DNA from: Liolophura sinensis
Lineage: Eukaryota; Mollusca; Polyplacophora; Chitonida; Chitonidae
Assembly: GCF_032854445.1 (NCBI RefSeq)
Contig: NC_088295.1
Location: 93,427,805 to 93,491,804, forward strand
Length of the DNA stretch: 64,000 nt
Direction: 5' to 3'
Both the position numbers and the translations under genes were made by a program. Of this stretch, positions 313-45,204 are shown piece after piece. Each line of letters begins with the position of its first letter. Position 1 is the first letter of the stretch. The notes beneath the pieces are model-generated. The model was not told the DNA's origin. It was given only the letters and a program-made list of their open reading frames with translations, and did not search any database.

Positions 313-373
313 ATGGTCGCCTTCCACACCACTCTCTTCCTCGGACTCATCTTTGTCTCCACGGTGGCGTCAC
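313..373 (+). CDS. Exon 1: signal peptide
   Basis: Twenty codons plus one base from an ATG with a purine at -3 and G at +4. The peptide is a typical signal sequence: hydrophobic LFLGLIFV core and a small-residue end (VAS) just before the Gln-Asp-Pro-Cys start of the mature protein in exon 2. The donor is GTAAGG at 374 and the intron phase is 1. A downstream exon at 56531 has the same length, phase and type. Confidence 0.85.
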
Positions 374-3300
374 GTAAGGCAGTGTCTGATTTAACACATT
401 TGTGTCTTAGAAAATTATTTCGCATTCATTTTAATTTAAGTTATTTATAATTCTCTTGTGTTTATATAAAGAAAATTACCTACAGTTTAAAAGCCATTTA
501 TATATTTTTCGTCGATTGTTGCATTCATGTTAGCATAACAATTTATTTGCAGAAGACCCCTGTGAGACAACCCGAACGCTTCCAAACTTGCAGAGAAGAG
601 GCACGAACATCAACGTCCCCGGCAACCTCACTAATGTTCTCTGTGACAGTGACATTAGTGGATACTACATTGTGAATCAGCAGATTGCGAGTATGTTTGT
701 TCCCGCGGGGAGATGTGGGACGAACGTTCCCGTGTTTGCAACACGTAAGTTCATCGGTTTAATTCTTTATCGACAATGGCAAATAGTTACTGATACTTGT
801 ATCTGTGCAGGTAATATTTGTATCAATCATAAGGAAGACTTGGCTTATCTTAAGAACTGACAATAAGCGGTGTTTAATTCCCCTCCCTTCCCCTTTCTTG
901 TTCTCCTCTAGCCTCCTATGTGAAACGCTCGTCTGGTAGGAAAGAAACCTACTTCCTTTCTCGTCTTAAAGTTTCCTGCCTTCTGTTCTGTTAGTGTCCG
1001 GTTTAATGTCATGTGTGAATCTTGTCGCAGGACGATGAATCCGTGTCACATTCTCCATTCTCCTCCCGTTTGAAAATCCGCTCTAGTCGTGTTTGAAAAT
1101 CGCCTGTTGTCAGTGACGAACGGACCACTCTTTCCCATTGCCAGATTGTTTTTCCTAATTTCGTGTCCAAATCTTACACTGTCTTGTCATGTGAGGGCTC
1201 GGTCCATCATGGTAAAGATCTCTTCTCCGTGCTAACATCTTCTCCATCATCTGATGACAAAACCTACCGTATCCTTTTCCCAGGCGTCGATCTCGCTTCT
1301 TGATCCTAGCGGCAAATTTTTCTCGTTTTGCTGTGTTGTACTCCATGTGAATATTGCAAGCAGCACACTTCTGTGTCAAGGTTTTGTTCCTCTTCTTGTG
1401 TCAAAGTCCACCTTGATCTGATGAGTGAATCTCGCCTCTTTTCTCGCGCGTCTCTCTGCTTTCTTCTGAAATGAAAATCCGCTATACTCTCATATGTAAA
1501 TCTGCCTTGTTATTGGCAAGCATCTAAGCACGGAGTTTGACATTCATGTTTATATACCACTGGTAAACAACGAAAGGAGATTCCATGTCGTAATCGCAGC
1601 ACATCTTCTCTTGAACAAAAGCCGGCTTCCTATCCCTGTAAAATTCTCCCCTTTCCCCCTGTTTCACCGCCCATCGTAAAGCCCAGAGCCAACCCGCTTC
1701 AACCATTCCCTATGTCCAATTCGTCCCTCTCCCCATGCGTCACCGCCCATCGTAAAGTCCAGAACCAACCCGCTTCAACCATTCCCTGTGTCCCATTCGT
1801 CCCTCTCCCCATGTGTCACCGCCCATCGTAAAGCCCAGAACCAACCCGCTTCAACCATTCCCTGTGTCCAATTCGTCCCTCTCCCCATGTGTCACCGCCC
1901 ATCGTAAAGCCCAGAACCAACCCGCTTCAACCATTCCCTGTGTCCAATTCGTCCCTCTCCTCATGTGTCACCGCCCATCGTTAAGCCCAAAACCAACCCG
2001 CTCCAACCATTCCCAATGTCCAATTCGTCCCTCTCCACATGTGTCACCGCCCATCGTAAAGCCCAGAGCCAACCCGCTTCAACCATTCCCAATGTCCAAT
2101 TCGTCCCTCTCCACATGTGTCACCGCCCATTGTAAAGCCGAGAACCAACCCGCTTCAACCATTCCCTATGTCCAATTCGTCCCTCTGCACATGTGTCACC
2201 GCCCATCGTAAAGCCCAGAATTAACCCTTCTTCAACCATTCCCAATGTCCAATTCGTCCCTCTCCCTATGTGTCACCGCCCATCGTAAAGCCGAGAGCCA
2301 ACCCACTTCAACCATTCTCTATGTCCAATTCGTTCAAATATGTGACCCTCCTTCCCTTGTGAGTAAAACTCATCTAAATCTCAAATTTATCTTATTTCAC
2401 ACCACTGCACTGGACGATGTCGAGAGACCAAGGATCAATCCCTTGTCGGATCATACAAAAGATCCATACCTGCCACATAAAGGATCAGAAAATTTATGGA
2501 TTTGATTTTAAATTTTAGTTCAATGTCGGATTTGAAATGGAAGTAAAACTTGAATAAACAGAGCAAAAATGTTCGAATTTAAACTTGCTCGCTTATATAA
2601 TGTAAATTACTTATAAAGGCTTAACTCTATTCCTGGGAAATTTTCCCATTTCCTGGAGAAAAGTAATAACTAAAGAAAAACATGATAGTACATCTTCAGG
2701 GAATAGTGCTTCACTCAGTTTGTCCATAGTCTTGTTTTACATTTGTACTGGAGTCATGCTCGCCTACACAACAATTTTACAGGTAAATTCGATCTTCCAC
2801 CCTAAGCAGCTGTCTTTCATTCAAGCTCCTTTACAACACATTGGGCCTACTCTTCTATCCATTTCTCTCTTCTGTACCTGTCTCTCTCCTCTGTATCCGC
2901 CTCTCTCCTCAATACTCGCCTCTCTCCTCCATACACGTCTCACTCCTCAGCCTCTATACCTGTTTCTCTCTTCTGTACCCGTCTCTCTCCTCAAACCACG
3001 TCTCTCCTATCTGTACTCGTCCGTCTCTAGTCTCTTTACTCGTCTTTCTACTCTACACGCCCGTCTCTCGTCTCATTACTCGTCTTTCTCTCCTCTGTAC
3101 AACGCCGCTTTTCGATATGTCCGTCTCTCTCGTCTCTATGCCGGTCTTTCCCCTCTATACTCGTCTACATCGTCTGCACGTCTCTTTCCTATTTACACTA
3201 GCCTGTCCTCTCGACACACGTCTTTCTCCTTTATACACGTCTCCCTCTTCTCTTTCCCTGTCGCTCTCATCTCTGTACTCATCTTTTCCATCTCTATATT

Positions 3301-6300
3301 CGTCTTTCGACTTTCTATACCCGCCCCTCTCCTCTGTACCCGTCTTTCTTTTAGTACTCGTCTCTCTCCACTATGCCCGTCTCATTGCTCTCTATATCCA
3401 TCTCTCTTCTCTAAACTCGTCTCTCTCATCTAAACTTGTCTTATCTTCTCTATACTTTTCTCCCACCTCTCTATACTCGACGTACGTGGGAAGGTCTGCC
3501 AGCAATTTGTGGATGGTCGTGGGTTTCTCCCGGGCTCTTTCCGGTTTCCTCCCACCATAATGCTGCCGGCCGCCGTCGTATAAGGAAAATATTCTTTAGT
3601 ACGGCGTTAAACACCAATCAAATAAATGAATAAATAAGTCTATCTCATATCTATACACGTCTATTTCTTCTATACCCGTCTCTCTCCTCGCTGTACTCTG
3701 TACTCGCCTGTTTTTCTCTCGAAGCTTCATACCTGTCTTCCTTCTCTCTATACCCGCTTTGCTCCTCTCTCTACTCTTCTCTCTTCACTATACCTGTCTT
3801 TATCCTCTCTATTCTCCTCTCTCTCCTCTCCCTACGCGTCTCTCTTCGCTTTATACTCGTCTCTCCGGTATACCCGCCTCTCTTGTCTCTATCCCCGTCT
3901 CTGTCCTCTTTTTTCCCGTCTCTCTCCTTTCTTTCTTCCTCTCTCTACTTTCTAACCCCCTTGTCTCTTCTCACTATTCTCCTCTCTCTCCATTATAGCT
4001 GTCTCTCTCCCCTCTATACTTATTTCTCTTCTCTCTCTGCACCTTCATGTTCTCTTTATACTCGTGTCTCTGGAATATACCCGTCTCTGTCACATCTATA
4101 CTCGTTTCTCACCTCTTTATACTCGTTTCTCTCCTCTGTACCAGTTTGCCTCCTCTCTGTACCTGTCCTTCTTATCTATTCCCCTCTCTACTTTCTAGCC
4201 CCTTGCCTTTACTCTATACACGTCTCTCTCCTCTTCATCTCCGTTTCTCACCTCCGTATACTCATCTTTTTCCTCTCTCCATTCGTCTTTCTTCTTTCTA
4301 TACCCGTTCCTCTCCTCTATACCCATTTCTCTGCTCTCTATACCCGTCTCTCCTCTTAATACTCGTCTCTATCCTATAAGCATCTCCCTTCTCTCTATAC
4401 CTGTATTCCTGCTTTCTGTACTCGTCTCTTGCCCCTATATACTCTTCTCTATCATCGTTATAGTCGTCTCTCTCCTATATACCCGTCTTTCTACTTCCTT
4501 GCTATACCTCATTCTAGCACTCTACACACATCTCCTTGTTGGATTTGTTTTTACTCGTGTATTTGCCTAAAATGTTGTTTTCCCCGTGTTGCCTGCACCT
4601 GGTTATTGTATTGCAGAGTCTTTATCAAATGTCCAGGGGGTGACAGTCCCGGTTTCAGTTTGCTTGAGTAGAGCTACGTCTAACAACAACGTGCTATGCG
4701 CAGACACCAGACAGATAAATGCCACCTGGTGCGGGACGCATTACGTCTATGGTCTTGTGCCCTTACCCTGTGACAACGACGGCAATGCTGCCTACTGCAT
4801 CAGTAAGTACTTCAATATTGCTCATATGTCTTTTATTAACGGTACTATTAAAAGAGTTGATTGCTTTGTGTATGATTCTTTTCAACGGCAAAAGACTTTT
4901 CGTTGTATATTACTTTTCTCCAGTGGCTAAGCTTTTGTGCTCTTTATGTCTAACAATGGAACGTTTTATTGTTTTCCGCAGATGCCATGACCTCAGGTAA
5001 GTTGTCCCTTGTTTCAGCGGTCAAGGTTTCTCGATCAGTCGGTTGGTTTACATTAGCGCAGGCTAGTATTTTGAAATTCACAAAGAGTATCATAGACACA
5101 AGCGAGTGTTGTTCAAGTGTGTGTACAAGTACAGTCACCAATAACTCCTGGAACAAGAGTGTGTACAAGGTCTGTCACCAATAACTCCTGGATCAAGATT
5201 GTGTACAAGTACTGTCACCAATAACTCCTGTTCATTTTAATGTCCGTAAATTTCTTTCACTGTGCATGATCTATCCACTGAAAACAGCATTGACTAATTG
5301 TTTAGAGGAGCAGAAATGTAGCTTTTGTAGTCCAAATATGGCCTTAGGTCGAATGCAAGATTTTAATCACAGATTTTGCTTAACCCACAAACACAGCACT
5401 GGTATGAGCTTTATTTGATTGTTTTGACTCAGCCTACCGAAAGTCAGCTCCAAGATGCTACATTTAGGGCAGTTTAGCTTACTACATCTTCTCAGCCATG
5501 ACTTATTTATTCATTTATTTGATTGGTGTTTTACGCCGTACTCAAGAATATTTCACTTATACGATGGCGGCCAGCAATATGGTGGGAGGAAAACGGGCAG
5601 AGCCCGGGGAAAACCCACGGCCATCCGCAGGTTGCTGATAGACCTTCCCACTTACGGTCGGAGAGGAAGCCAGCATGAGCTGGACTTGAATTCACAGTGA
5701 CCACATTGTTCTCAGCCATGACAGTTTTTGTTTTATTGGAACAGCACTTAGAAATAAGAAAAATCTTTGCCGCTAATTCAAAACATTTTTTGATCAAGCG
5801 TAAGTGCTCATTTATGACTTCCCCATAACTTCGTTTGTTTTATTTGGCACTACATGTCTATAACCTAAGGTGATTAAACTTCTAGGTGAGTTTGATCCGG
5901 TCCCCACACCGCCACCCCCACCAGAGCCGGTTCCAGTTTCAACTGGTAAGTGACACTGAATATAAGTGGTACAGTGGCCGAAGTACATGGTGTCGTGTTA
6001 ACTATTGTCATTTTCTTATCGGTCAATTGCTCTCTTTAAAATACTATCCAAGAGACACTTGGGTATGTTGACACTTCTTCAGCCTGTCAGTAAATAACTG
6101 GTTTGTGGATAATTTATATATCATAAGTTTACCGTTTTTTATTGCATTTTTTAAAAAAAATCAGCAAGCCCTGTTCAGTGCGTATTCTCCGCTGATAAAG
6201 CTCGTTGTTTTTCGTAGTAGAATCGGGTAAACTCATTCAACTGATAGTAACTTACTTTATAGGGATCAAGAAAATAACGAAAACACGATTTTTCGTCTGT

Positions 6301-36300: not shown

Positions 36301-39300
36301 ACCTTTTATTTCCATGTTTATACCAGGATGTTTCATTGGAAATCGGTGTTACGTATCTGGCCAGCGCGCCAGCGTCGCCGACTCTTGTCGTACATGTGCC
36401 CCGGCTATATCGAAGTTTGATTTCACAATTACTGGTAAGTAACAAATTCGCATCTTTCTCGGTTACATATATCCCTACGTTTATTTTACATTCACAAATA
36501 GTACTTGGTTGTAAATTCTTTTGCCCTATGTAGCTGGCATGATCAGTTGGACCCTGGGATTCAGAAACTAATACATGTCTTTAAGTTGGACTTAGATTTG
36601 TTTTAGCCTACACTGTATTGTATTGTAAGTTCATCTAAATGTCATATACGTAAACAACATTGCAAACCGACCGTATACAGTGTAACAAATGTGGTAGTAT
36701 GTAATCTATGATACATGGATATACAGTGACAATTGTGGTAGTATGTAATCTATGATATACGGGTATACAGTGTGACATTTGTGGTAGCATGTAATCTATG
36801 GTACACGAGTATACAGTATGACAAATGTGGTTGATTGCAATCTGTGATACAGACCTAGAAAAATATATAGTTTAATAAAAAATACATAGTTTTGGAACTG
36901 TGCACTTACCACTGCCATAAAACGCATAATGTTGCAGGAGGGTGCATTATCAACAATCAGTGTTTCCCGACGAATGCCCAGAGTTCCGATAATCCGTGTA
37001 ACCGGTGCATACCATCATCCAGCCTCTCTGCTTTTACACCAATGTGTGAGTGAAATTACCTTTAATATTGGCTGTCCAGGCACAAACTTGTCAAAGAGTC
37101 TCACAATCTCCGTTTTCCTTAAAAAAAGTGCATCATCTATTTTTCCTGGGCAATTCAAGCTAAGAAAATTTAGACATGACTTCACGTTTTAATGTCAGGT
37201 AGCCAAAAAAACAAAAAATACAGAACTAGAAGAAATCACCATTTGCCATTTTGGTAGTTGTACACACTTGTCCACACGTACACACTTATCATACCACAAC
37301 AGCAAACAGCACACAACTGCTATCCAACTAAATCACTGCGCCAAACAGCACACACCGCGACCAACACATGCAATAACTCCGCCAAACAGCAAACACCACG
37401 GCTAGCCCACAAAATCAAACGCCAAACTGCATACGCTGCAGGTATCATAGAGAATCACTCCACTCAAACTGCACAGGCAACGGCTATCTCAAAGAATCAA
37501 TCTGCAAGTCTGTATATTGCATACACTACAGGTATCCCAAAAATCCCACCGCCGAACTACGTCACACCTAACCTAACACACCACGGCTATATCACTCGGT
37601 CAAATTACACACACCATGGCTATCCCACAGAATCACTTTGCCATACCGCATACACTATTGGTATCCCAAAGAGTCACTTCACCGAACTACGTCACATCTA
37701 CCCCGACACACTACGGCTATCTCAAAGAGTCACTCCACCATATTGCATTCATTACAGCTATCCCAAAAAATCAATTCACCGAACTACATCAGACCTACCC
37801 CAACACACCACGGCTATCTCAAAGAGTCACTCAGCCAAATTACACACACCACGTCTATCCCAAAGAATCACTTCACCGAACTACGTCACATCTACCCCAA
37901 CACACCACGGCTATCTCAAAGAGTCACCCCACCATATTGCATACACTACAGGTATCTCAAAGAATCACTTCACCGAACTACGTCAAACCTACCCCAACAC
38001 ACTAGGGTTATCTCAAAGAGTCACTCGGTCAAATTACACACACCACGGCTATCCCAAAGAATCACTCCGCCATACCGCATCCACGACAGGTATCCCAAAG
38101 AATCACTTCACCGAACTACGTCACATCTACCCCAACACACCACGGCTATCCCAAAGATTCACTCCGCCATACCGCATCCACGACAGGTATCCCAAAGAAT
38201 CACTTCACCGAACTACATCAGACCTAGGCCGACACACCACGGCTATCTCAAAGAGTCACTCAGCCAAATTACACACACCACGGCTATCCCAAGGAATCAC
38301 TCCGCCATACGGCATCCACGACAGGTATCCCAAAAAATCACTTCACCGAACTACGTCAAACCTACCCCAACACACTAGGGTTATCTCAAAGAGTCACTCG
38401 GTCAAATTACACACACCACGGCTATCTCAAAGAGTCACTCGGTCAAATTACACACACCACGGCTATCCCATAGAATCACTCCGCCATACCGCATCCACTA
38501 CAGCTATCCCAAAGAATCACTTCACCGAACTACATCACATCTACCCCAACACACCACGGCTATCCCAAAGAGTCACTCGGCCAAATTACACACACCACGG
38601 CTATCCCATAGAATCACTCCGCCATACCGCATCCACTACAGCTATCCCAAAGAATCACTTCACCGAACTACATCACATCTACCCCAACACACCACGGCTA
38701 TCCCAAAGAGTCACTCAGCCAAATTACACACACCACGGCTATCCCAAAGAATGACTCCGCCATACCGCATCCACGACAGGTATCCCAAAGAATCACCCCA
38801 CCGAACTACATCAGACCTACCCCAACACACCACGGCTATCTCAAAGAGTCACTCAGCCAAATTACACACACCACGGCTATCCCAAAGAGTCACTCGGTCA
38901 AATTACACACACCACGGCTATCTCAAAGAGTCACTCGGTCAAATTACACACACCACGGCTATCCCAAAGAATCACTCCGCCATACCGCATCCACGACAGG
39001 TATCCCAAAGAATCACCCCACCGAACTACGTCAAACCTACCCCAACACACTACGGCTATCTCAAAGAGTCACTCGGCCAAATTACACACACCACGGCTAT
39101 CCCATAGAATCACTCCGCCATACCGCATCCACGACAGGTATCCCAAAGAATCACTTCACCGAACTACATCACATCTACCCCAACACACCACGGCTATCCC
39201 AAAGAGTCACTCAGCCAAATTACACACACCACGGCTATCCCAAAGAGTCACTCAGCCAAATTACACACACCACGGCTATCCCAAAGAATCACTCCGCCAT

Positions 39301-41855
39301 ACCGCATCTACGACAGGTATCCCAAAGAATCACTCCTCCGAACTACACCAGACCTACTCCAACACACCACGGCTATCCCTAAGATTCACTCCGCCATACC
39401 GCATACACTACAGGTATCCCAAAGAATCACTTCACCGAACTACATCAGACCTACGCCGACACACCACGGCTATCTCAAAGAGTCACTCGGCCAAATTACA
39501 CACACCACGGCTATCCCAAAGAATCACTCCGCCAGACCGCATACACTACAGGTATCCCAAAGAATCACTTCACCGAACTACATCACATCTACCCCAGCAC
39601 ACCACGGCTATCCCAAAGATTCACTCCGCCATACCGCATACACTTCAGGTATCCCAAAGAATCACTTCACCGAACTACATCAGACCTACGCCGACACACC
39701 ACGGCTATCTCAAAGAGTCACTCGGCCAAATTACACTAACCACGGCTATCCCAAAGAATCACTACGCCATACCGCATCCACGACAGGTATCCCAAAGAAT
39801 CACTCCTCCGAACTACATCAGACCTACCCCAACACACCACGGCTATCTCAAAGAGTCACTCGGCCAAATTACACACGCCACGGCTATCCCAAAGAATCAC
39901 TTCACCGAACTACGTCACATCTACCCCAACACACCACGGCTATCTCAAAGAGTCACTCGGCCAAATTACACACACCACGTCTATCCCAAAGAATCACTAC
40001 GCCATACCGCATCCACGACAGGTATGCCAAAGAATCACTTCACCTCACTACATCAGACTTACCCCAACACACCACGGCAATCCCAAAGATTCACTCCGCC
40101 ATACCGCATACACTACAGGTATCCCAAAGAATCACTTCACCGAACTACATCACATCTACCCCAACACACTACGGCTATCTCAAAGAGTCACTCGGCCAAA
40201 TTACACACACCACGGCTATTCCAAAGAATCACTCCGCCATACCGCATACACTTCAGGTATCCCAAAGAATCACTTCACCGAACTACGTTACATCTACCCT
40301 AACACACCACGGCTATCCCAAAGAGTCACTCGGTCAAACTACACACACCACGGCTATCCCAAAGAGTCACTACGCCATACCGCATCCACGACAGGTATCC
40401 TAAAGAATGACTTCACCGAACTACATCAGACCTACCCCAACACACCACGGCTATCCCAAAGAATTACTCCGCCATACCGCATCCACGACAGGTATCCCAA
40501 AGGATCAATCCATCGAGTAACGTCACACCTACCCCAACACACCATGGCTATGTCAACGAGTCACTCGGCCAAACTACACACACCACGGCTATCCCAAAAA
40601 GAACTCCACCGAACTACATTACAAGCTAGATTGATCTTTTTTACAAGTGACTTGTTCAATGGTTTTGTTAAGTTACTTTACTGGAGTAATTTGTTTAACA
40701 CCAAAGCTTATATCAGCAGACATACTGCTGCGGGAGTACTGCACTTGCAATATGATTTCTCCCAATCTTAACACTTGTATTCACAGTGCACAAAATGCCT
40801 ACTGTTTGTAGCTCTTTTCCGGTTTTATTAATCCGTGACGTATCAGCAAGATAGGAAAGTTCTTGATATATATCCAGAAAACTAACACCATGAATGATGG
40901 TTGTGTTTCAGCTGGTTGTGCTGTTGGTAATACATGTGTGGACAATGGTCAAACGAATCCGGTGAACCTTTGTGAAAGATGTGACACGAGCAGAACCACC
41001 AATGGCTACAGCCAGACGTTTTACCAAACCATCTTCTCCAGTATGTTATTTTTCCAATTTACTATAGCACGACACATATATAAACATAAACAGTTATAAT
41101 CCTGCAGCTTAGTTTCAGAAGTTGCTTAAGTCTGAAAGACTAAATAATTGGTAAGTTCACTGGTTTATTGATTGGTTAATTACTTGGTATGCAACCCTAG
41201 TAGAGATATCGTTTTACTTATATGACGGCAACGTCAATGAAACTGGTGCAAAAAGAGCACACTTTGCCTTTTAACAGCTCCTGTTATAAAGTCGCTACTA
41301 TCCTCCTGGTCCCTTTCAAAGCTCTCCTTTTTAAGGCCATCGCCTTCCCCCTGGTGCCTTACAGAACTCGAGTTCTGAGGCAAGTGTCCTTCCTGTGGTG
41401 CCTTACAAAGCTTTGGTTTTGAGGCTGCTGCCCATTGCTAGGTGTCCCTGGTGCCTTAGAAAGTACTCGTTTTAAGGCGGCTGTCGTAACTGTTGACGTT
41501 ACAAAGCTCTTGTTTTAAGACCACCGCCTTATCCATCCTTCCTTACAAAACCCTCGTTTTAAAAATGGCTGCCATTTACAAAGTGTTTACACGGCCCCCG
41601 CTTGCAGACCGCTACCCTTCGCAAGTCTATTACGATCCCTTTTTTAAGGTCATTGCCCTTCCCCTGGTGCCTGGTGCTCTCGTTTTAAGACCACTGGAAA
41701 TATTGTGAAAGATACAAAGATTTCAGTTTTTATAGCCTTCGTATTACTGAAAATAAACGGAAAGCTGTAAATAAATTAGACCTTACCATTTAGACGAAAA
41801 ACATCCGAACGGACTTTTAGTATTCATGAAAACTTAAAACATTAAATTTCTTCGA

Positions 41856-41927
<72 letters not shown>

Positions 41928-42973
41928 TGCAATTTTTTATAAGTTTGTGTGGCCTTTTTAGCCTATGTACGTGGGAATGTCTGCCGGCAACCTTCGGATG
42001 GGCGTGGGTTTCCGCGGGCTCTTTCCGGTTTCCTTCCACCATAATGCTGGCTGCATTATGATTATTTCCTCATAATTCCTCATTTGATTATTTGCTAATT
42101 AATTTGAATGAAAATGTGAAAAGATCGACCTATTTATATAAAAATTAAAAAATCACAGTGTTCCGTGAAAGGGTGTGTAATTTGTGTGGTGATTTATCTT
42201 GTGGTGACAGTTCTGAAACCCACTGACAAAACCACGGCGGAGGTGATTGAGGCTGTTGTTTTTTTGTTTGTTAACATCCATATAGTGCCCATAATGCCTG
42301 CATAGGCAGAGATAAACAGCCATGCACAGTTAATAGACAAATACTGTACAAGCAATAAACATTCAGCGGATGCATGACTTTTCATAGTAAGTAGAGTTTT
42401 GCAGTGAGCTATTCCCCCTGGTTGTTGGAGGACTAAAAATAAACACTACTACCTTGGTATACAACAAAGTATACATGTTATACAGTTCAAAGTATTTACA
42501 ACATGAATTTCATCTTCAAGTGACAGGTAAGATAAGAAAACGGAGAATCAAAATTTGGCGTACAAAATGACGAAACACCACACCTTGAACTGCTGCTCTT
42601 TGCCAGGCGCCTTGTATCTGGAAGATTCCCATGTAATTACGTGTATGTTTGTAAGCTTAGCTGGCTCTAGTCAAGCCGTGGCTAACTGAATGCTTTTGTG
42701 CTCAGGTTAATATCTCTCTCTGTTTCAGATACAGTCTCTTGCTTTGCGTTTTGTCAGCAGTTGTCAAGTATCGCGGCATCATTGCAATTTTTTTGCTCTA
42801 GTCCAAATTCAGTAGACTATTCCACCTACTGCACCTTGGAAAATCTCGAGGATTACAACAACCTTGCCTGTCCAACCACACTCCAAAATACCCTTGTAAT
42901 AAATTTTTGTTCAAATCGAGACACACTCCCTGCAGCTACGTCGTTGAGTAATGCCTGTGCCTTAGGACGATAA
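313..42973 (+). CDS. 29-exon gene for a secreted D8C plus 21-module cysteine-rich protein
   Basis: I joined 29 exons (listed separately) at GT-AG borders. They total 3507 nt, one frame of 1168 residues plus stop. Predicted order: signal peptide 1-20; D8C domain about 21-146; short linker and proline-rich stretch 147-171; ten-cysteine region 172-314; 21 four-cysteine modules 315-1087; C-terminal cysteine-rich region 1088-1168. No transmembrane segment or GPI-type tail is evident, so the product is probably extracellular. D8C domains occur in uromodulin, GP2, OIT3 and, as I recall, VWDE-like proteins; the four-cysteine module resembles one that follows the Ig-like part of VWDE-like proteins, but no VWD or EGF domain is present here. 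Function is unknown; a role in mucus, matrix, adhesion or defence is guesswork. Total agreement of phase across all joins is the main support. Individual weak borders (exon 26 acceptor, exon 4) could be wrong, and a missed symmetric exon would not disturb the frame. Confidence 0.85.
553..744 (+). CDS. Exon 2: N-terminal half of the D8C domain
   Basis: Acceptor TTTGCAG, donor GTAAGT, 64 codons, phase 1-1. It encodes residues 21-84 with Cys24 in a DPC start, Cys51 in CDSDISGYY and Cys75 in GRCGTNVPVF. These match the D8C hallmarks CDxxLxGWY and CGTxxP known from uromodulin-type proteins. A possible N-glycosylation site is at Asn45 (NLT). The other five cysteines are in exon 3, nearly 4 kb away. 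Confidence 0.88.
745..1654. other. Intron 2, first part: no recognised feature
   Basis: Pyrimidine-rich unique or very degenerate sequence. Short phrases recur loosely (GAAAATCCGCT at about 1073 and 1472), but I could not define a unit. The short ORFs on both strands carry no recognisable domain. Confidence 0.5.
1655..2335. repeat. 76-bp minisatellite, about 9 copies
   Basis: The phrase CCGCCCATCGTAAAGCCC returns at 1667, 1743, 1819 and 1895, an exact 76-bp step, and continues with more substitutions to about 2335. The 132- and 86-codon ORFs inside it are periodic by-products. After it, 2335-2800 shows nothing clear apart from a possible relic of a dispersed repeat near 2400-2470. Confidence 0.9.
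2860..4515. repeat. Pyrimidine-rich tandem array, about 17-20 bp unit, split by a SINE
   Basis: Many degenerate copies of a CTCTCCTCTATACCCGTCT-like unit on the plus strand form about 1.6 kb of C/T-rich DNA within intron 2. The array is interrupted by a SINE at about 3483-3636. All three plus frames stay open for long distances because the unit lacks purine-rich stops; these ORFs are not genes. The long pyrimidine tract ends about 100 nt before the exon 3 acceptor. Confidence 0.85.
3483..3636 (+). mobile_element. SINE, 5'-truncated copy
   Basis: Shares with the other copies the blocks ACGTGGGAAGGTCTGCCAGC, TCGTGGGTTTCTCCCGGGCT, TTTCCTCCCACCATAATGCT and the tail GGCGTTAAACACCAATCAAA followed by AATAAATGAATAAATAA. 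The tRNA-like head is missing. It sits inside the pyrimidine-rich array. Confidence 0.85.
4617..4802 (+). CDS. Exon 3: C-terminal half of the D8C domain
   Basis: Acceptor TATTGCAG, donor GTAAGT, 62 codons, phase 1-1. It supplies Cys100, Cys112, Cys123, Cys136 and Cys145, completing eight. The end reads CGTHYVYGLVPLPC then AYC, matching the family's terminal CxxxYYVYxLxxxPxC...AYC pattern. A possible N-glycosylation site is at Asn119 (NAT). This match to the family signature is the strongest domain call in the gene. Confidence 0.9.
4982..4996 (+). CDS. Exon 4: 15-nt microexon
   Basis: CCGCAG acceptor, then 15 nt, then GTAAGT. It is phase 1-1 and adds five residues (NAMTS), so inclusion or skipping keeps the frame. 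Both splice sites are good, but an exon this small could be chance. Confidence 0.55.
5119..5230. repeat. Short tandem repeat, about 2.5 copies of a 45-bp unit
   Basis: GTCACCAATAACTCCTGG occurs three times at even spacing within intron 4, together with GTGTACAAG. Confidence 0.8.
5506..5707 (-). mobile_element. SINE, reverse orientation, nearly full length
   Basis: Read on the minus strand it runs from CACTGTGAATTCAAGTCCAG (B-box region) through the shared core to the tail, seen here on plus as TTATTTGATTGGTGTTTTAC. It lies in intron 4. Confidence 0.88.
5886..5945 (+). CDS. Exon 5: proline-rich linker
   Basis: Acceptor TTCTAG, donor GTAAGT, 20 codons, phase 1-1. It encodes residues 152-171 with the run PVPTPPPPPEPVPV, a likely extended spacer between the D8C domain and the next region. 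The following intron (5946-6343) holds nothing I recognise. Confidence 0.78.
6344..6522 (+). CDS. Exon 6: first part of the ten-cysteine region
   Basis: Acceptor TTCCTAG, donor GTAAAT. It enters in phase 1 and leaves in phase 0, unlike the other early exons. It encodes residues 172-231 with five cysteines (TDCDF, GVCDR, TACLV, TCCYRE) and a possible N-glycosylation site (NIT). I have no confident family name; position and cysteines fit the segment between D8C and the Ig-like part of VWDE-like proteins. The following intron, 6523-7262, shows nothing recognisable. Confidence 0.78.
7263..7511 (+). CDS. Exon 7: Ig-like end segment with CxxC
   Basis: Acceptor TTGTTTCAG, donor GTGAGA, 83 codons, phase 0-0. 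It encodes residues 232-314. The stretch LVSISRDHVFYG then VPYDGRCWTCSF and a further cysteine resembles the VxxSxDGxxFS...VYDSxCxxC...C pattern that I recall from VWDE-like proteins, where it closes an Ig-like (TIG) fold and is directly followed by the same four-cysteine module as here. The domain name is from memory and needs a profile search. Confidence 0.8.
7530..7660. repeat. Direct duplication, about 70 bp, two copies
   Basis: GAACTCCACACC followed by TTAGGCCGTAAGTGTCAG occurs at about 7530 and again at about 7602 in intron 7. Confidence 0.75.
7688..7905 (+). mobile_element. Two adjacent SINE tail fragments
   Basis: A tail fragment at about 7688-7762 (GCCGCCGTCGTGTTAGTG to CGCCAATCAAAT) is followed at about 7780-7905 by a second, longer fragment (CCCCCGGGCTCTGTCCGCTT to an AATAAATAAATGAAT tail). 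Both lack the tRNA-like head. Confidence 0.8.
8000..8830. repeat. Minisatellite, about 50-bp unit
   Basis: Units around AATCCCCGTTAATGTCACAA and CAGCATCCCTGATTGT repeat with many substitutions and alternate in pairs. It is specific to intron 7. The sequence from 8830 to 9218 is unique. Confidence 0.82.
9219..9330 (+). CDS. Exon 8: cysteine module 1 (third cysteine lost)
   Basis: Acceptor ATTCCAG, donor GTTAGT. Phase 0 in and 1 out, so this exon converts the gene to phase 1. Residues 315-351: CFIEGRCYINGG then REICNP. The first of the paired cysteines (Cys3) is an arginine (CGG), leaving three cysteines. The motif otherwise fits, including a W near the end (EWSII). Confidence 0.82.
9420..10085. 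repeat. Minisatellite, about 52-bp unit, about 12 copies
   Basis: Recurring TTTGTACTAGTTGTGTACAT and GCAGATAA blocks with GTGGCGTATCGCAC between them. It is confined to intron 8. Nothing is recognised in 10086-10452. Confidence 0.88.
10453..10572 (+). CDS. Exon 9: cysteine module 2 (second cysteine lost)
   Basis: Acceptor GTTTCAG, donor GTGAGA, 40 codons, phase 1-1. It opens GCADNTGLTYLSGE, where the expected second cysteine is absent (TY replaces CY), then ends CLQCVPEVSQTQLTVV. Three cysteines. The C-terminal half is close to module 14 (CLQCV...LTVV). Confidence 0.82.
10905..11065. repeat. Tandem repeat, about 30-bp unit
   Basis: CCACGTATGGTCATGCGCTA recurs about five times in intron 9. 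Confidence 0.8.
11190..11372. repeat. CTGT-rich simple repeat
   Basis: Degenerate GTCTGTCTGTCC and CGTCTGTTCGTC runs. Codons read in it are periodic noise. The rest of intron 9 (11373-12313) shows nothing recognisable. Confidence 0.85.
12314..12424 (+). CDS. Exon 10: cysteine module 3 (class A)
   Basis: Acceptor TTTCAG, donor GTAGTA, 37 codons, phase 1-1. GCYIQNVCIGEG, then CLVC and an end in AYSPSP. Spacing C-x5-C-x11-C-x2-C. Class A marks: no aromatic after the second cysteine and a YSP end, shared with modules 7 and 12. The next intron (12425-13051) has no recognised feature. Confidence 0.86.
13052..13159 (+). CDS. Exon 11: cysteine module 4 (class B)
   Basis: Acceptor TATTTCAG, donor GTAAGT, 36 codons, phase 1-1. 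CFINGACYDRGQQ then CQGCDPDVSLYSFSVL. Spacing C-x5-C-x11-C-x2-C. The GQQ and F-S-x-L end relate it to module 8. Confidence 0.88.
13185..13440. repeat. 47-bp minisatellite, about 5 copies
   Basis: ATTATTACACGTGTACATAT recurs at 47-bp steps (13221, 13268 and on) in intron 11. Confidence 0.9.
13534..13556 (+). repeat. Poly-G tract
   Basis: Almost unbroken run of G on the plus strand, interrupted by one A, directly before a SINE head. It could form a G-quadruplex, or be an assembly-sensitive homopolymer. Confidence 0.8.
13558..13655 (+). mobile_element. SINE head-only fragment
   Basis: Matches only the tRNA-like 5' part of the SINE: GGCTCCTTGTCCGAGTGATT, GGAGCCTCTCACAG and the B-box-like GTGAGTTGAAGTC. 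The central core and tail are absent, the reverse of usual 5' truncation. Confidence 0.7.
14439..14546 (+). CDS. Exon 12: cysteine module 5 (class C)
   Basis: Acceptor TTTTTCAG, donor GTGAGT, 36 codons, phase 1-1. MCRINNMCYTPGQ then CLGCDPLVS and an LSPL end. Spacing C-x5-C-x10-C-x2-C. The LSP end is shared with module 9. Confidence 0.86.
14700..14943 (+). mobile_element. SINE, full length with tRNA-like head
   Basis: Runs from GCCTCCGTGACTTAGTTGAT (A-box region) through GGAGCCTCTCACCCATGTGG and GTGAGGCCTAGTCC (B-box position) to the shared core and the CACCAATCAAATAAATAAAC tail. It lies in intron 12. Confidence 0.85.
15066..15240 (+). mobile_element. SINE, 5'-truncated copy
   Basis: Starts at the B-box region (GCTGTGAGTTCAAGTCCAAT), then the core TCGTGAGTTTCTCCCGGGCT and tail AACACCAATCAAATATATAA. 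The following 15241-15935 holds nothing I can define. Confidence 0.82.
15940..16600. repeat. 55-bp minisatellite with splice-like motifs, about 12 copies
   Basis: Units repeat at 55 bp (ACAAGGATAC at 16081, 16136 and 16191). Most carry TTGCAG, then TGTTGG, then GTAAGT, which looks like an acceptor, a 6-nt gap and a donor. It is specific to intron 12. Confidence 0.9.
16762..16869 (+). CDS. Exon 13: cysteine module 6 (class D)
   Basis: Acceptor TGTTCCAG, donor GTAAGC, 36 codons, phase 1-1. GCYINGRCYGEGEVSPTNPC then RRC and a TNFTTN end with a possible N-glycosylation site (NFT). Spacing C-x5-C-x11-C-x2-C. Closest to module 11 (PCRRC, RT-x-x-TT). Confidence 0.9.
16925..17135. repeat. Tandem repeat, about 20-bp unit
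   Basis: AGTGCCTGGAGTGCAATCC-like units, about ten degenerate copies. Confidence 0.85.
17275..18065. repeat. Minisatellite, about 22-bp unit, about 35 copies
   Basis: GGTGGTTAACATGGGTGGGC units with substitutions through intron 13. G-rich on the plus strand. Confidence 0.9.
18114..18252 (-). mobile_element. SINE, reverse, partial
   Basis: Plus strand reads TTATTTGATTGGTGTTTTAC, CAGCATTATGGTGGGAGGAA, GACCATCCGCAG: tail and core, without the head. Confidence 0.85.
18345..18455 (+). CDS. Exon 14: cysteine module 7 (class A)
   Basis: Acceptor CTTTCAG, donor GTAACA, 37 codons, phase 1-1. GCFINGQCVAELSPNPLGDC then RVC and a DDDDYSPPP end. Spacing C-x5-C-x11-C-x2-C. Very close to module 12 (QCVPELAPSP, GDCRIC, YSP). 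The intron after it (18456-18821) shows nothing notable. Confidence 0.9.
18822..18929 (+). CDS. Exon 15: cysteine module 8 (class B)
   Basis: Acceptor TTTTACAG, donor GTAAGT, 36 codons, phase 1-1. YCYIGGRCYARLQQ then CLACVPEVSQFEFSIL. Spacing C-x5-C-x11-C-x2-C. Confidence 0.9.
18950..19265. repeat. Short-unit tandem repeat (CCACAACCTGCCA-like)
   Basis: Degenerate 12-16 bp units of ACAACCTGCCAC, CATAACCTGCCA and similar across 300 bp of intron 15. ORFs on both strands here are by-products. 19266-19865 has no recognised feature. Confidence 0.88.
19866..19976 (+). CDS. Exon 16: cysteine module 9 (class C)
   Basis: Acceptor TTTTCCAG, donor GTAAGT, 37 codons, phase 1-1. RCYVSGQCYFSGF then CLECIPTISQDILSPS. 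Spacing C-x5-C-x11-C-x2-C. Confidence 0.9.
20185..21300. repeat. 40-bp minisatellite, about 27 copies
   Basis: AAAGGTTCTGCCAAGCTTAC returns at 20201, 20241 and 20281, and then more degenerate units (TTCTGCTAAGCTTACCCAGC) continue to about 21300. The first third is much more homogeneous than the rest, suggesting recent expansion at that end. Confidence 0.92.
21417..21521 (+). CDS. Exon 17: cysteine module 10 (class D)
   Basis: Acceptor TTGCAG, donor GTAAGT, 35 codons, phase 1-1. GCFINGECYAEGTTGP then CLQC and a TDWTVT end. Spacing C-x5-C-x10-C-x2-C. The same length and WTVT end as module 15. It is followed by decayed copies of itself. Confidence 0.92.
21582..21861 (+). pseudogene. Three decayed copies of the module 10 exon
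   Basis: The segment at about 21582-21637 aligns with the 3' half of module 10 and its donor region. The segment at about 21648-21754 (CTTTATAAACGACGTATGTT) aligns with most of the exon. The segment at about 21768-21861 (same phrase, ending AAGCTACAG before GTAAGT) is a third copy with an intact donor. Frameshifts and in-frame stops (for example TATGTTGATAAAAAG after the second cysteine position) prevent coding. Confidence 0.75.
21930..23060. repeat. Minisatellite, about 78-80-bp unit
   Basis: Alternating blocks TGTGTGTCAAGATTCTGTTC, TACGGTCGCATGGAGTGTGT and TATGCCGTCTTTCTACGATC. The 161-codon ORF inside is periodic. It is specific to intron 17. Confidence 0.9.
23214..23321 (+). CDS. Exon 18: cysteine module 11 (class D, extra)
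   Basis: Acceptor CTCTTCAG, donor GTGAGT, 36 codons, phase 1-1. GCYVDGICYSENQ then PCRRCDESQNRTQLTTT, with a possible N-glycosylation site (NRT). Spacing C-x5-C-x11-C-x2-C. It is a second D-type module next to module 10. 23322-24030 has no recognised feature. Confidence 0.9.
24040..24490. repeat. 52-bp minisatellite, about 8 copies
   Basis: GGGATACCGTGCACACACCA recurs at 24239, 24291 and 24343 (52 bp). Minus-strand ORFs with a repeating YPCCSA peptide are by-products. Confidence 0.9.
24530..24870. repeat. 38-bp minisatellite, about 9 copies
   Basis: AGTAGCGATATATACAAATC with AAAGAACTGGGC at about 38-bp steps; distinct in sequence from the 52-bp array just before it, though the AAGAACTGAGCAG phrase suggests a shared origin. 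Confidence 0.88.
25145..25255 (+). CDS. Exon 19: cysteine module 12 (class A)
   Basis: Acceptor GATTTCAG, donor GTAAAA, 37 codons, phase 1-1. GCYINNQCVPELAPSP then GDCRIC and an AYSPRA end. Spacing C-x5-C-x11-C-x2-C. Near twin of module 7. The intron after it (25256-25646) is unremarkable. Confidence 0.92.
25647..25751 (+). CDS. Exon 20: cysteine module 13 (class B)
   Basis: Acceptor TTTCACAG, donor GTAAGA, 35 codons, phase 1-1. FCFINNACFSANTAIGRFC then RGCNPMTDLY. Spacing C-x5-C-x10-C-x2-C; a Phe replaces the usual Tyr after the second cysteine. Confidence 0.9.
25778..25992 (-). mobile_element. SINE, reverse, near full length, diverged
   Basis: On the minus strand it has the head (GTTACCGAGCTGGGTAATGA), the B-box-like GAGTTCAAGCCCAG, the core and a degraded tail. 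Older than most copies here by its mismatches. Confidence 0.82.
26265..26850. repeat. Minisatellite, composite 31-65-bp units
   Basis: GGATAGCTAACTATATCTGC and ACTGTATCTACCAGTCTACT alternate with CTGTGCCGCACA. It appears to be the diverged ancestor or neighbour of the 31-bp array that follows. Confidence 0.88.
26855..27235. repeat. 31-bp minisatellite, about 12 nearly identical copies
   Basis: TACCGTTCACGATAACTAAC repeats at exactly 31 bp (26922 and on) with almost no substitutions, a sign of recent expansion or homogenisation. 27236-27655 keeps weak traces (ACTGTACCGTACA). Confidence 0.92.
27656..27763 (+). CDS. Exon 21: cysteine module 14 (class C)
   Basis: Acceptor TTTGCAG, donor GTAAGT, 36 codons, phase 1-1. 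YCYVAGTCYTQGQAPLGLDC then LQCVTTNPEELTVV. Spacing C-x5-C-x11-C-x2-C. Confidence 0.92.
27815..27965. repeat. 42-bp tandem repeat, about 3.5 copies
   Basis: GGATATTCAAAAGGCACGTG at 42-bp spacing in intron 21. Confidence 0.85.
28020..28114 (-). mobile_element. SINE core fragment, reverse
   Basis: Plus strand shows GGCCAGCATTATGGAGGAAG, AACCCACGGCCATGCGCAGG; flanking head and tail are missing. Confidence 0.8.
28115..28250. repeat. 34-bp tandem repeat, about 4 copies
   Basis: GGTTACATACTGTCGCAGAT-type units directly abut the SINE fragment. They resemble the TCGCAGATCA phrase of the 66-bp array at 59.7 kb. Confidence 0.82.
28550..28654 (+). CDS. Exon 22: cysteine module 15 (class D)
   Basis: Acceptor CATTACAG, donor GTACGT, 35 codons, phase 1-1. 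GCYIDSQCYAEGAQGPLPC then LRC and a TEWTVT end. Spacing C-x5-C-x10-C-x2-C; twin of module 10. Confidence 0.92.
28770..28895. repeat. Tandem duplication, two copies of about 61 bp
   Basis: TCTGGTGTGGCATTTGTCAG with AAAATGCGCATATCTG and TTTCACTGTAACATTG occurs twice in a row. Confidence 0.9.
28961..29007 (-). mobile_element. SINE tail fragment, reverse
   Basis: TTATTTATTTATTTGATTGG followed by TGCTTTACCCCGTACTC, then the match stops. Confidence 0.75.
29110..29425. repeat. Minisatellite, about 20-bp unit
   Basis: GGTGAGACAGCCCTGTGCAT units. The words GTGA-ACA-CCCTGT are shared with the 46-bp unit that follows, so the larger array may have arisen from this one. Confidence 0.88.
29425..31625. repeat. 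46-bp minisatellite, about 48 copies
   Basis: ACACAACCCTGTACATGACA repeats every 46 bp, with AGGAGCACTCCT (an imperfect palindrome) and TGTATGTGGTG in each unit. A rare variant (CGATAAGATCACCC) occurs at 30921 and 31243, exactly seven units apart, and TGTGCATGAC is displaced by the same 322 bp, so a seven-unit block was duplicated. Minus-strand ORFs of up to 766 codons run through it in all three frames because no unit frame has a stop; 46 is not a multiple of three, so these are artefacts and not genes. Confidence 0.95.
31737..31774. other. Intronic hairpin before the module 16 exon
   Basis: CTTTCTGGCT pairs with AGCCAGAAAG, continuing inward with TCACA/TGTGA after one mismatch: 15 bp with a 6-nt loop. 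It ends 45 nt before the exon 23 acceptor. Confidence 0.75.
31820..31927 (+). CDS. Exon 23: cysteine module 16
   Basis: Acceptor TCTATAG, donor GTATCG, 36 codons, phase 1-1. GCYVDGECHPEGPVPG then CMQC and a KTEFTIQ end. Spacing C-x5-C-x11-C-x2-C. Position between ABCD blocks; class unclear, nearest to D. His replaces the usual Tyr after the second cysteine. Confidence 0.88.
31928..33128. other. Intron 23: mostly unique sequence
   Basis: One of the few long introns of this gene without a minisatellite. It contains a probable reverse fragment of dispersed repeat family 2 at about 32865-32910 (CCCGGGTCGAATCATACCAA). Nothing else is recognised. Confidence 0.5.
33129..33239 (+). CDS. Exon 24: cysteine module 17
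   Basis: Acceptor GTTACAG, donor GTAAGC, 37 codons, phase 1-1. QCYIDGRCYAFDEA then CSKCYPAVSRTSFTTT. Spacing C-x5-C-x11-C-x2-C. Class ambiguous (B-like VS-x-x-SF, D-like RT-x-FTT). Confidence 0.9.
33510..33785. repeat. 21-bp minisatellite, about 13 copies
   Basis: GTGTACATGTATGTATTCAC at 21-bp steps. Because 21 is a multiple of three, it gives heptapeptide-periodic ORFs on both strands. 33786-34582 is AT-rich and otherwise plain. Confidence 0.9.
34583..34699 (+). CDS. Exon 25: cysteine module 18 (class A)
   Basis: 39 codons, phase 1-1, donor GTAAGA. The acceptor (GTGAAG) lacks a good pyrimidine tract, the weakest splice site of the series. GCSIGNQCVPEGVAESPLNF then CRVC and a GYSISDN end. 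Spacing C-x5-C-x12-C-x2-C. Class A by CV and the YS end. Confidence 0.78.
35070..35297. repeat. 32-bp minisatellite, about 7 copies
   Basis: GAAAGCTTGTCCAGAAGCCA followed by CAAAGGGTGTGT. It directly abuts the next array. Confidence 0.88.
35298..36015. repeat. 68-bp minisatellite, about 10 copies
   Basis: CGTATCGGAGAACAAAATGC and TGCAGTGAGGAGTTATAATC at 68-bp steps (35441, 35509). Confidence 0.92.
36327..36434 (+). CDS. Exon 26: cysteine module 19 (class B)
   Basis: Acceptor TACCAG, donor GTAAGT, 36 codons, phase 1-1. GCFIGNRCYVSGQ then CRTCAPAISKFDFTIT. Spacing C-x5-C-x12-C-x2-C. Confidence 0.9.
36685..36850. repeat. 45-bp tandem repeat, about 3.5 copies
   Basis: TGTGGTAGTATGTAATCTAT at 36690, 36734 and 36780, with TATACAGTGTGACA between. 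Confidence 0.85.
36938..37045 (+). CDS. Exon 27: cysteine module 20 (class C)
   Basis: Acceptor GTTGCAG, donor GTGAGT, 36 codons, phase 1-1. GCIINNQCFPTNAQ then CNRCIPSSSLSAFTPM. Spacing C-x5-C-x11-C-x2-C. Confidence 0.88.
37400..40620. repeat. Composite minisatellite of three related subunits, 3.2 kb
   Basis: Three subunit types of about 44-53 bp share GGCTATCCCAAAGAATCAC but differ in the remainder: CGGCCAAATTACACACAC; CCGCCATACCGCATCCACG; and ACCGAACTACATCACATCTA. They mostly follow one another in fixed order, giving a higher-order unit. The plus-strand ORF of 498 codons is a by-product. It occupies nearly all of the largest intron (27). Confidence 0.93.
40912..41040 (+). CDS. Exon 28: cysteine module 21 (class A, longest)
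   Basis: Acceptor GTTTCAG, donor GTATGT, 43 codons, phase 1-1. GCAVGNTCVDNGQTNP then CERC and a GYSQTFYQTIFS end. Spacing C-x5-C-x11-C-x2-C. Extended C-terminally by about seven residues compared with its class. Confidence 0.88.
41270..41700. repeat. Degenerate tandem repeat, about 50-bp unit
   Basis: CCCCTGGTGCCTTACA and GCTCTCGTTTTAAGACCACC-like phrases recur about eight times. Confidence 0.7.
41858..41930. repeat. (GT)n microsatellite
   Basis: About 36 GT units with one A interruption. Confidence 0.97.
41962..42060 (+). mobile_element. SINE central fragment
   Basis: TACGTGGGAATGTCTGCCGG to CCACCATAATGCTGGCTGC; head and tail are missing. It sits just after the GT microsatellite. 42061-42728 has no other feature. 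Confidence 0.82.
42729..42973 (+). CDS. Exon 29: unique C-terminal cysteine region and stop
   Basis: Acceptor CTGTTTCAG, phase 1 in, ending with TAA at 42971-42973. Encodes residues 1088-1168: seven cysteines, opening SCFAFCQQLSS and ending NACALGR. It does not match the module pattern and I do not recognise it. It ends the long frame exactly and is followed by a poly(A) signal, supporting it as the last exon. An odd cysteine count could allow intermolecular bonding. Confidence 0.85.
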
Positions 42974-43022: not shown

Positions 43023-43028
43023 AATAAA
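43023..43028 (+). terminator. Poly(A) signal of the D8C gene
   Basis: Canonical AATAAA 50 nt after the stop codon, with T/G-rich sequence (GTTGTTGCTTTATGTGT) about 30 nt downstream. Confidence 0.75.
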
Positions 43029-44509: not shown

Positions 44510-45204
44510 GAATACAGCGGCCAAGACGGTGCAAGGTAGATTCCACGGCTGGATCAGACAGAGATACACATGAGCGAGAATGGGCTGCTGAAGGAATGCG
44601 ACTCATAGATATACAGAAAATGGTGTGTATATGGAACAAAGTAATGCTTGAGCACAGTGAGACCAAGGACCACTGTCCACTGCCCAGGTTAGAGATAGCT
44701 GCAGAGAAAAAGTGGGGTTTAGCCTGGGCGTTCAGTTTTAAGTGCTGTGACTGTGACTATGTATCTGGCTTCCACAAATTCTACAAAGAGGTAGAATGCA
44801 ACAGACCTGGCCAAAAAGCTGCGGCGGTGAACCGAGCTCTTCAAGTAGGCCTCCAGGACACACCAATGGGGAACACCCGAGCCAGACTCCTATTTGCAGC
44901 GATGGACGTGCCGCCTGCCACTCGTAGGAACATGCATCGCACTGCAAACCATGTCGCATCTGCAATCGCAAAGCTGAACAGAGAGGATATGGCAAATAAG
45001 GTGGAAGAGGTAAAGGCATACAAAAGGCAAAGAGGAGAGGATGACAGCACAATAGATCTGGCCACAGACACTCGCTACAACAACATTGCCATAACCAGTC
45101 CCAAGAAACCGGGCCAGAATGCTTCACAAGCAATTTCCCTGGCTGTGGAGACATCAACAGACAAGCAATACATTGTCTCCGCAGCACTGAAGAATAAATT
45201 GTGA
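44510..45204 (+). pseudogene. Mutator-like transposase-domain protein, fragment
   Basis: Open frame through 45204 (TGA at 45202-45204), with an ATG at 44596 but open upstream. Features: KWGLAWAFSFKCCDCDYVSG (CxxC), then RPGQKAAAVNRALQ, RKNMHR-like RRNMHRTANHVA, then ATDTRYNN and a late ASQAISLAVE. This order matches, from memory, the N-terminal part of Mutator-like transposase-domain proteins common in sponges, cnidarians and molluscs. Such proteins continue well past this point with the catalytic part, so the TGA after KNKL probably truncates it. Codon composition is richer in G+C than its repeat neighbours. It could instead be one exon of a spliced copy: no donor is evident at the stop. Confidence 0.7.

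What the first reader, a model, noticed from the sequence alone, without database searches (positions are those of the whole stretch)
313..42973. A D8C protein with 21 tandem one-exon cysteine modules
The reconstructed protein joins a uromodulin-type D8C domain to an unusually long run of small C-x5-C-x(10-12)-C-x2-C modules, one per exon, with no VWD, ZP or EGF domain. As far as I know from D8C proteins (UMOD, GP2, OIT3, VWDE), this architecture is not a standard one. The frame is continuous over 3507 nt and 29 exons. It may be a lineage-specific extracellular polymer, matrix or defence protein.
Basis: partly seen in the sequence, partly recalled or inferred. Interest (0 to 1): 0.78.

Follow-up and report, generated by a model that had tools for sequence, protein, structure and literature searches.

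The report
VWDE-derived gene with 21-module exon array
This looks like a real gene for a secreted protein that kept parts of the animal protein VWDE, lost others, and multiplied one small cysteine module 21 times; sister genes in the same genome carry from 4 to about 63 copies, so a protein family appears to be growing by copying single exons.

Summary
The 29-exon, 3507-nt, 1168-residue model was rebuilt exactly, with AG/GT at all 28 introns. A module profile made only from another locus (C3) finds 21 of 21 module exons at E <= 0.0014 and nothing else below 0.05 in the window's two strands or its reversed sequence. Three old duplicate exon pairs show pN 0.28 against pS 0.74, a sign of coding constraint without cDNA.

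The module is the small module of VWDE-type genes: three such genes here, with one copy seen in each stretch read, match the window's module profile at 8e-15 to 1.4e-13, and the exon 6-8 linker matches theirs. The "D8C" is a divergent eight-cysteine version of the VWDE/UMOD domain; it fails Pfam directly and rests on intermediates.

It belongs to a family: eight further linker exons at E <= 4e-8, clustered on C1 and C3. Four loci hold 4, 21, 43 and about 63 modules; one C3 array repeats a 3.2-kb five-exon unit ten to eleven times. Function is inferred: a secreted, disulfide-rich spacer or matrix protein. No cDNA or fold was available.

The parts
313..373 (+). Exon 1: start codon and signal-peptide-like sequence
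   Evidence: highest hydropathy of the protein at residue 1
553..744 (+). Exon 2: first half of the D8C/D10C-type domain
   Evidence: counterpart in paralog P2
4617..4802 (+). Exon 3: second half of the D8C/D10C-type domain
   Evidence: counterpart in P2
4982..4996 (+). Exon 4: 15-nt microexon
   Evidence: no relative sought
5886..5945 (+). Exon 5: proline-rich hinge
   Evidence: no relative sought
6344..6522 (+). Exon 6: VWDE-type linker, first half
7263..7511 (+). Exon 7: VWDE-type linker, second half; eight paralogous exons at E <= 4e-8
9219..9330 (+). Exon 8: module 1 (starts phase 0; lacks third Cys)
10453..10572 (+). Exon 9: module 2 (lacks second Cys)
12314..12424 (+). Exon 10: module 3 (end 12424 or 12427)
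13052..13159 (+). Exon 11: module 4
14439..14546 (+). Exon 12: module 5
16762..16869 (+). Exon 13: module 6 (pairs with exon 18)
18345..18455 (+). Exon 14: module 7 (pairs with exon 19)
18822..18929 (+). Exon 15: module 8 (start 18822 or 18783)
19866..19976 (+). Exon 16: module 9
21417..21521 (+). Exon 17: module 10 (pairs with exon 22)
23214..23321 (+). Exon 18: module 11
25145..25255 (+). Exon 19: module 12
25647..25751 (+). Exon 20: module 13
27656..27763 (+). Exon 21: module 14
28550..28654 (+). Exon 22: module 15
31820..31927 (+). Exon 23: module 16
33129..33239 (+). Exon 24: module 17
34583..34699 (+). Exon 25: module 18
36327..36434 (+). Exon 26: module 19
36938..37045 (+). Exon 27: module 20
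40912..41040 (+). Exon 28: module 21, longer terminal-type module exon as in P1, P2, C3a and C3b
42729..42973 (+). Exon 29: Cys-rich C-terminal domain and stop codon; weakly similar to the last exons of C3a and C3b
43023..43028 (+). AATAAA polyadenylation signal

Best explanation
Shown from sequence: the window holds what looks like a complete gene of a VWDE-derived family. It encodes a signal peptide, an eight-cysteine D8C/D10C-type domain, a Pro-rich hinge, a VWDE-type linker, 21 tandem copies of the VWDE module (one exon each) and a Cys-rich C-terminal domain; no VWD or EGF match was found. Sister loci carry 4 to about 63 modules. The array probably grew by duplication of single exons and of blocks of exons, which the phase 1-1 introns make frame-safe. 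Inferred: the product is secreted and soluble. Each module is a small disulfide knot; complementary Cys losses in neighbouring modules suggest C2-C3 and C1-C4 bonds and one disulfide between modules 1 and 2. The array works as a stiff, protease-resistant spacer or matrix strand, with the D8C-linker head and the C-terminal domain as binding or assembly ends, and array length sets the reach or mesh of the secreted material.
For: Gene model; 21 of 21 module exons recovered by the C3 profile. P2 shows the same exon order with 4 modules. pN 0.28 / pS 0.74 over three duplicate pairs, with no blastn match (E <= 1e-3) left in five intron pairs. Linker plus first module against VWDE-type genes: z 26.5 (C6), 25.1 (C1:81.3), 6.4 (C4), 0 of 300 shuffles each; profile-profile probability 99.7. 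Single VWDE-type modules match the window module profile at 8.2e-15, 2.6e-14 and 1.4e-13. D8C chain: window-P2 z 20.9, P2-C4 z 16.0, window-C4 z 5.1, 0 of 500 shuffles each; profile-profile probability 96.5; the C4 domain matches uromodulin at 7.6e-16 and GP2 at 4.2e-14. Block duplication: exons 13-17 against 18-22 p 0.001, 13-18 against 18-23 p 0.0005, 2000 shuffles.
Against: The window D8C has no Pfam match at E <= 10. The C4 linker match is the weakest (z 6.4). Shorter blocks are marginal (three exons p 0.0675, four p 0.0485) and a test for a repeating order of module types found none (p 0.39-0.66, k 3-7). Exon 29 is only weakly like the other C-terminal exons: 0 of 1000 shuffles reach it for C3a and C3b, but 42 for P1 and 16 for P2, and a genome search with it found no paralog. 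Profile searches found no D8C exon upstream of C3a and C3b or beside P1, in the stretches read. Across all 61 C3b modules the flanking introns are more alike (0.77, gapped) than the exons (0.64, ungapped). The spacer or matrix role rests on architecture alone.
Confidence: 0.6

Rival explanations
1. Immune decoy or opsonin: the D8C head presents a glycan or binds microbes as in uromodulin and GP2, and the changing module array provides reach or variable binding surfaces.
For: D8C/D10C is the FimH-binding decoy part of UMOD and GP2 (PMC8930769, passages). Six N-glycosylation sequons, two of them in the D8C. Clustered genes with differing arrays.
Against: pN below pS in the old window pairs and, where it can be computed, in C3 arrays (0.11 to 0.70) points to constraint rather than diversifying selection. 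No ZP match for filament formation. No D8C found near the C3 genes in the stretches read. No expression data.
Confidence: 0.2
2. A wound or regeneration role inherited from VWDE, a gene expressed in vertebrate blastemas.
For: Kinship with VWDE-type genes; VWDE is described as expressed in vertebrate blastemas with a role in their growth (PMC9117669, passages).
Against: The VWD and EGF parts that give VWDE its name were not found; the number of paralogs and the array growth are unlike a conserved signalling gene.
Confidence: 0.12
3. Many module exons are skipped or decaying: a shorter transcript (D8C, linker, few modules, C-terminus) is the real product.
For: No RNA evidence. Exons 9-28 are all phase-symmetric, so any can be skipped in frame. 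P2 has only 4 modules. Two low-scoring module-like stretches in C3a introns may be dead exons.
Against: 21 of 21 exons keep an open frame and splice sites, 19 of 21 the full four-Cys pattern; pN is far below pS for exons 13/18, 14/19 and 17/22.
Confidence: 0.12

Closest known systems
[quoted passage not shown]
   Same: D8C/D10C domain near the N-terminus; linker with a YD-x-x-C-x-x-C-like motif; the small four-Cys module directly after it.
   Different: No VWD or EGF match; module present 21 times; ends in a different Cys-rich domain where the C4 VWDE-type gene seems to continue into another domain.
Uromodulin and GP2 (D8C/D10C decoy module)
   Same: D8C-type domain, reached through the C4 intermediate.
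   Different: No ZP or EGF match. Eight rather than ten cysteines; the losses fit the C3-C6 disulfide of GP2 (bond listed in PMC8930769; alignment).
Sister loci in this genome (P2 on C1; C3a and C3b on C3)
   Same: Linker, one-exon modules, longer terminal module exon, a Cys-rich last exon.
   Different: 4, 43 and about 63 modules; near-identical modules in C3a, a five-module repeat unit in C3b. Of these, D8C exons were found only in P2.
Equinox proteins (planarian wound epidermis)
   Same: Predicted secreted multi-domain protein compared with VWDE in print (PMC9117669, passages).
   Different: TSP1 and EGF domains; its similarity to VWDE is stated to lie mainly in the EGF repeats, which were not found here.

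Membership tests
VWDE | D8C/D10C domain near the N-terminus | tested here: met
   By intermediates and profile-profile comparison only: z 5.1 directly to C4, 20.9 and 16.0 through P2; probability 96.5. Direct Pfam scan negative.
VWDE | VWD domain | tested here: not met
   No Pfam match in the 1168 aa; none of the 85 VWD matches at E <= 0.01 in the genome lies in the window. The scan also misses the D8C, so a very divergent copy is not excluded.
VWDE | EGF repeats | tested here: not met
   No Pfam match; the model ends at 42973 with a stop codon and a polyA signal.
VWDE | Linker followed by the small four-Cys module | tested here: met
   compared with VWDE-type genes of this genome only. That human VWDE has this pair is recalled.
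UMOD/GP2/OIT3 | ZP module | tested here: not met
   No Pfam match.
Pfam D8C_UMOD (PF23283) | Score above the curated cut-off of 27 bits | tested here: not met
   No match at E <= 10; the genome search lists three other places.
Known small Cys-rich domains (VWC and others) | Match to a domain model or solved chain | tested here: not met
   No Pfam match for the single, double or triple modules tried; only chance-level PDB matches (E 1.1 and 1.5) for the module profile. The likeness to half a VWC domain is recalled, a lead only.

The most novel reading that the evidence does not exclude
A VWDE-derived secreted family whose genes grow by copying one frame-safe exon, singly and as multi-exon repeat units, so that array length (4 to about 63 modules, perhaps varying between individuals) is itself the evolving trait that sets the reach or mesh of an extracellular material.
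Probability: 0.45. Interest if true: 0.72.

Novelty: new variant of a known kind. Interest (0 to 1): 0.6.

Why it matters
VWDE has, by recall, one copy of this module and no known job for it. A genome that turned the module into arrays of 4, 21, 43 and about 63 exons gives a natural series for asking what the module does. It also shows coding exons behaving like a satellite repeat: a 3.2-kb five-exon unit copied ten to eleven times in frame. I saw no description of such a family in the listings of eight searches of an open-access library; the listings were capped, so this is weak evidence of absence.

Tried and rejected
Pfam on the whole protein and on pieces gave nothing for the window gene; NCBIfam on nine modules gave nothing. 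PDB searches with the first 536 residues and with the module profile gave only chance-level matches.

A repeating order of module types, which I thought I saw by eye, failed a permutation test (p 0.39 to 0.66) and is dropped; the five- and six-exon block duplication passed, three- and four-exon blocks were marginal. Similarity at lag 5 and lag 9 was marginal (p 0.036 and 0.035, uncorrected, nine lags).

Kinship with VWC domains is a recalled resemblance that no test supported. Origin from EGF repeats was set aside: different Cys pattern and no Pfam match.

C3 array statistics are mixed: pN/pS 0.70 for C3a on very few differences, 0.11 and 0.39 for two C3b types, no synonymous differences at all in the two other types. 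Exons are more alike than flanks in four of the five near-identical sets; in the fifth they are equal (0.990 and 0.992). I do not lean on them.

A second piece of the C4 gene that I took for VWD had no Pfam match, nor did the stretch I recalled as the VWDE 'helical' region beyond a chance-level E 0.17; its absence from the window gene was not searched.

Counting: of 45 C3a hits I left out two low-scoring ones (8.5 and 10.6 bits); one of the 43 kept is a shortened candidate. C3b is 61 plus two read by eye. That each array is one gene is assumed. Most other long ORFs of the window lie in minisatellites; no Rfam match.

Full report
Observation. The gene model was rebuilt from the raw sequence: 29 exons from 313 to 42973, 3507 coding bases, 1168 residues, AG/GT at all 28 introns, a stop codon at the end and AATAAA at 43023. 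Exons 8-28 are 21 modules of about 35-43 residues; two Cys columns are invariant and two more are kept in at least 90%. Exons 9-28 begin and end in phase 1, so they can be duplicated or skipped without breaking the frame.

Is it more than chance? The strongest test uses no window sequence in the model. A profile from 40 unique C3 modules, run on the window's AG/GT candidate exons, gave matches overlapping 21 of 21 module exons with E from 3.6e-13 to 0.0014. The best match elsewhere was 0.079 on the plus strand (74 weaker matches up to E 10), 0.68 on the minus strand (5) and 0.14 on the reversed sequence (34). The C3 modules had themselves been found with a window-trained profile, so the sets are not fully independent, but the controls went through the same search. 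The window-trained profile gave 66 of 275 plus-strand candidates, 0 of 602 minus, 0 of 173 reversed, 1 of 389 complement and none in five shuffles.

Coding constraint. Exons 13/18, 14/19 and 17/22 are old duplicates. Their non-synonymous difference is 0.28 per site and their synonymous difference 0.74, near saturation, while the five introns after exons 13-17 show no blastn match (E <= 1e-3) to those after exons 18-22. That is what selection on protein sequence leaves.

What the parts are. The genome (609 Mb, 632 contigs) holds genes that look like VWDE. The C4 gene at 11.02-11.04 Mb has a Pfam D8C (E 1.5e-10), a VWD match (E 4.5e-4, over the cut-off), an EGF-like stretch just under the cut-off, a linker and one module. 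The C6 gene at 40.40 Mb has VWD (E 8.4e-7), an EGF-like stretch below the cut-off, linker and one module. The C1:81.3 Mb gene has linker and one module, then a repeat-rich stretch and a hydrophobic segment. Only stretches of 8 to 24 kb were read for each, so further modules are not excluded. The window's linker plus first module aligns to them with z 26.5 (C6), 25.1 (C1:81.3) and 6.4 (C4), and profile to profile with probability 99.7 (E-values there are for one comparison). Their single modules match the window-trained profile at 1.4e-13 (C6), 8.2e-15 (C1:81.3) and 2.6e-14 (C4). So I read the array as an amplification of the VWDE module. The VWDE label rests on domain order and on recall of the human protein; no VWDE from another species was compared.

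The D8C. Pfam gives no match at E <= 10. Pairwise it scores z 20.9 against paralog P2; P2 scores z 16.0 against the C4 domain; the window scores z 5.1 against C4, with 0 of 500 shuffles reaching any of the three. The C4 domain matches uromodulin and GP2 chains at 7.6e-16 and 4.2e-14. The window and P2 domains have eight cysteines where C4 has ten (sequences). GP2 pairs C3 with C6 (PMC8930769, passages). The two missing cysteines fit that pair, but which of the adjacent C6 and C7 is lost depends on the alignment.

A gene family. A search with exon 7 listed 13 places: itself, eight at E <= 3.9e-8 (five on C1 between 93.05 and 93.38 Mb, three on C3 between 13.75 and 14.14 Mb), three at E 0.018-0.058 (C10, C1:81.3, C6) and one at 0.65 with a stop codon. 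A one-module query listed 150 places at E <= 10 (150 of 163 candidates were scored), all but three of them on C1 and C3. P2 (C1, minus strand) has two D8C exons, two linker exons, four modules and a last exon; splice sites fitting the window's phases exist at each of these boundaries, though searched for those phases, and its first exon, microexon and hinge were not sought. C3a (14.07-14.15 Mb) has 43 modules of at least 12 bits, 32 of them nearly identical at about 1.2-kb spacing. C3b (13.77-13.83 Mb) has 61 in the scan plus two read by eye; its core is five modules repeated every 3.2 kb ten to eleven times.

The ends of the family. A Cys-rich last exon follows the modules of P1, P2, C3a and C3b. 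Among those four the likeness is clear (0 of 1000 shuffles for each of six pairs). The window's exon 29 is the divergent one: 0 of 1000 shuffles for C3a and C3b, but 42 for P1 and 16 for P2, and a genome search with it found no paralog. A D8C profile found no exon in the 10 kb further upstream of C3a and of C3b, or beside P1 (best E 0.033, repeat-like), while it finds P2's two exons (which it was partly built from) at 2.3e-29 and 1.8e-25. So D8C plus modules is seen in the window gene and P2; whether the others lack it is open.

How the window array grew. Exons 13-17 resemble exons 18-22 in order: 0.1% of 2000 shuffled orders reach the similarity of this block pair, and 0.05% for six exons; three exons give 6.8% and four 4.9%. 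That the window array grew by block duplication like the five-exon unit of C3b is an inference. A general periodic order of module types was tested and not supported.

Mechanism, inferred. The protein has a signal-peptide-like start, no later strongly hydrophobic stretch, six sequons and 107 cysteines, 9% of residues. In the window, module 1 lacks the third Cys and module 2 the second; in C3a the second and third modules found show the same losses, 13 kb apart. If C2 normally bonds C3, such neighbours could share one bond; this is a proposal from two loci that may share ancestry. A disulfide-stiffened strand with a head and a tail domain would serve as spacer or matrix component. I put this ahead of an immune decoy or a regeneration role; none of the three was tested.

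Literature. Eight searches were seen as capped listings only; none of the listed titles and abstract openings describes a VWDE-derived module array. Passages of PMC9117669 and PMC8930769 were read, no whole paper.

Noticed in passing
window 44596-45204 (+): Open frame of 202 aa matching Pfam Mutator-like transposase, E 1.6e-42.
   Followed up: partly
window introns, e.g. 29417-31622 (46-bp unit, 48 copies) and 37609-40619: Introns are crowded with minisatellites; the 46-bp array gives open frames of up to 766 aa on the minus strand that look like repeat artefacts.
   Followed up: partly
window 9219-9330 and 10453-10572; C3:14139444-14139554 and 14126372-14126479: Neighbouring modules with complementary cysteine losses (third Cys in one, second in the next) in two family genes.
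   Followed up: partly
L003-L004 (C3:14095832-14095960 and 14107936-14108055): Low-scoring module-like stretches inside introns of the C3a array, possibly dead module exons.
   Followed up: no
L017 (C1:81305338-81306589, minus strand): A VWDE-type single-module gene appears to continue into a repeat-rich stretch and a hydrophobic, membrane-anchor-like segment.
   Followed up: no
G000 C1:93141864-93142106 and C1:93247318-93247560: Two linker exons with identical scores about 105 kb apart, suggesting a recent duplication of a family gene.
   Followed up: no
L009 (C1:93347818, plus strand): Threonine-rich, mucin-like open frame with a short Cys-rich start upstream of paralog P1's linker exons; no Pfam match for its Cys-rich part.
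   Followed up: partly
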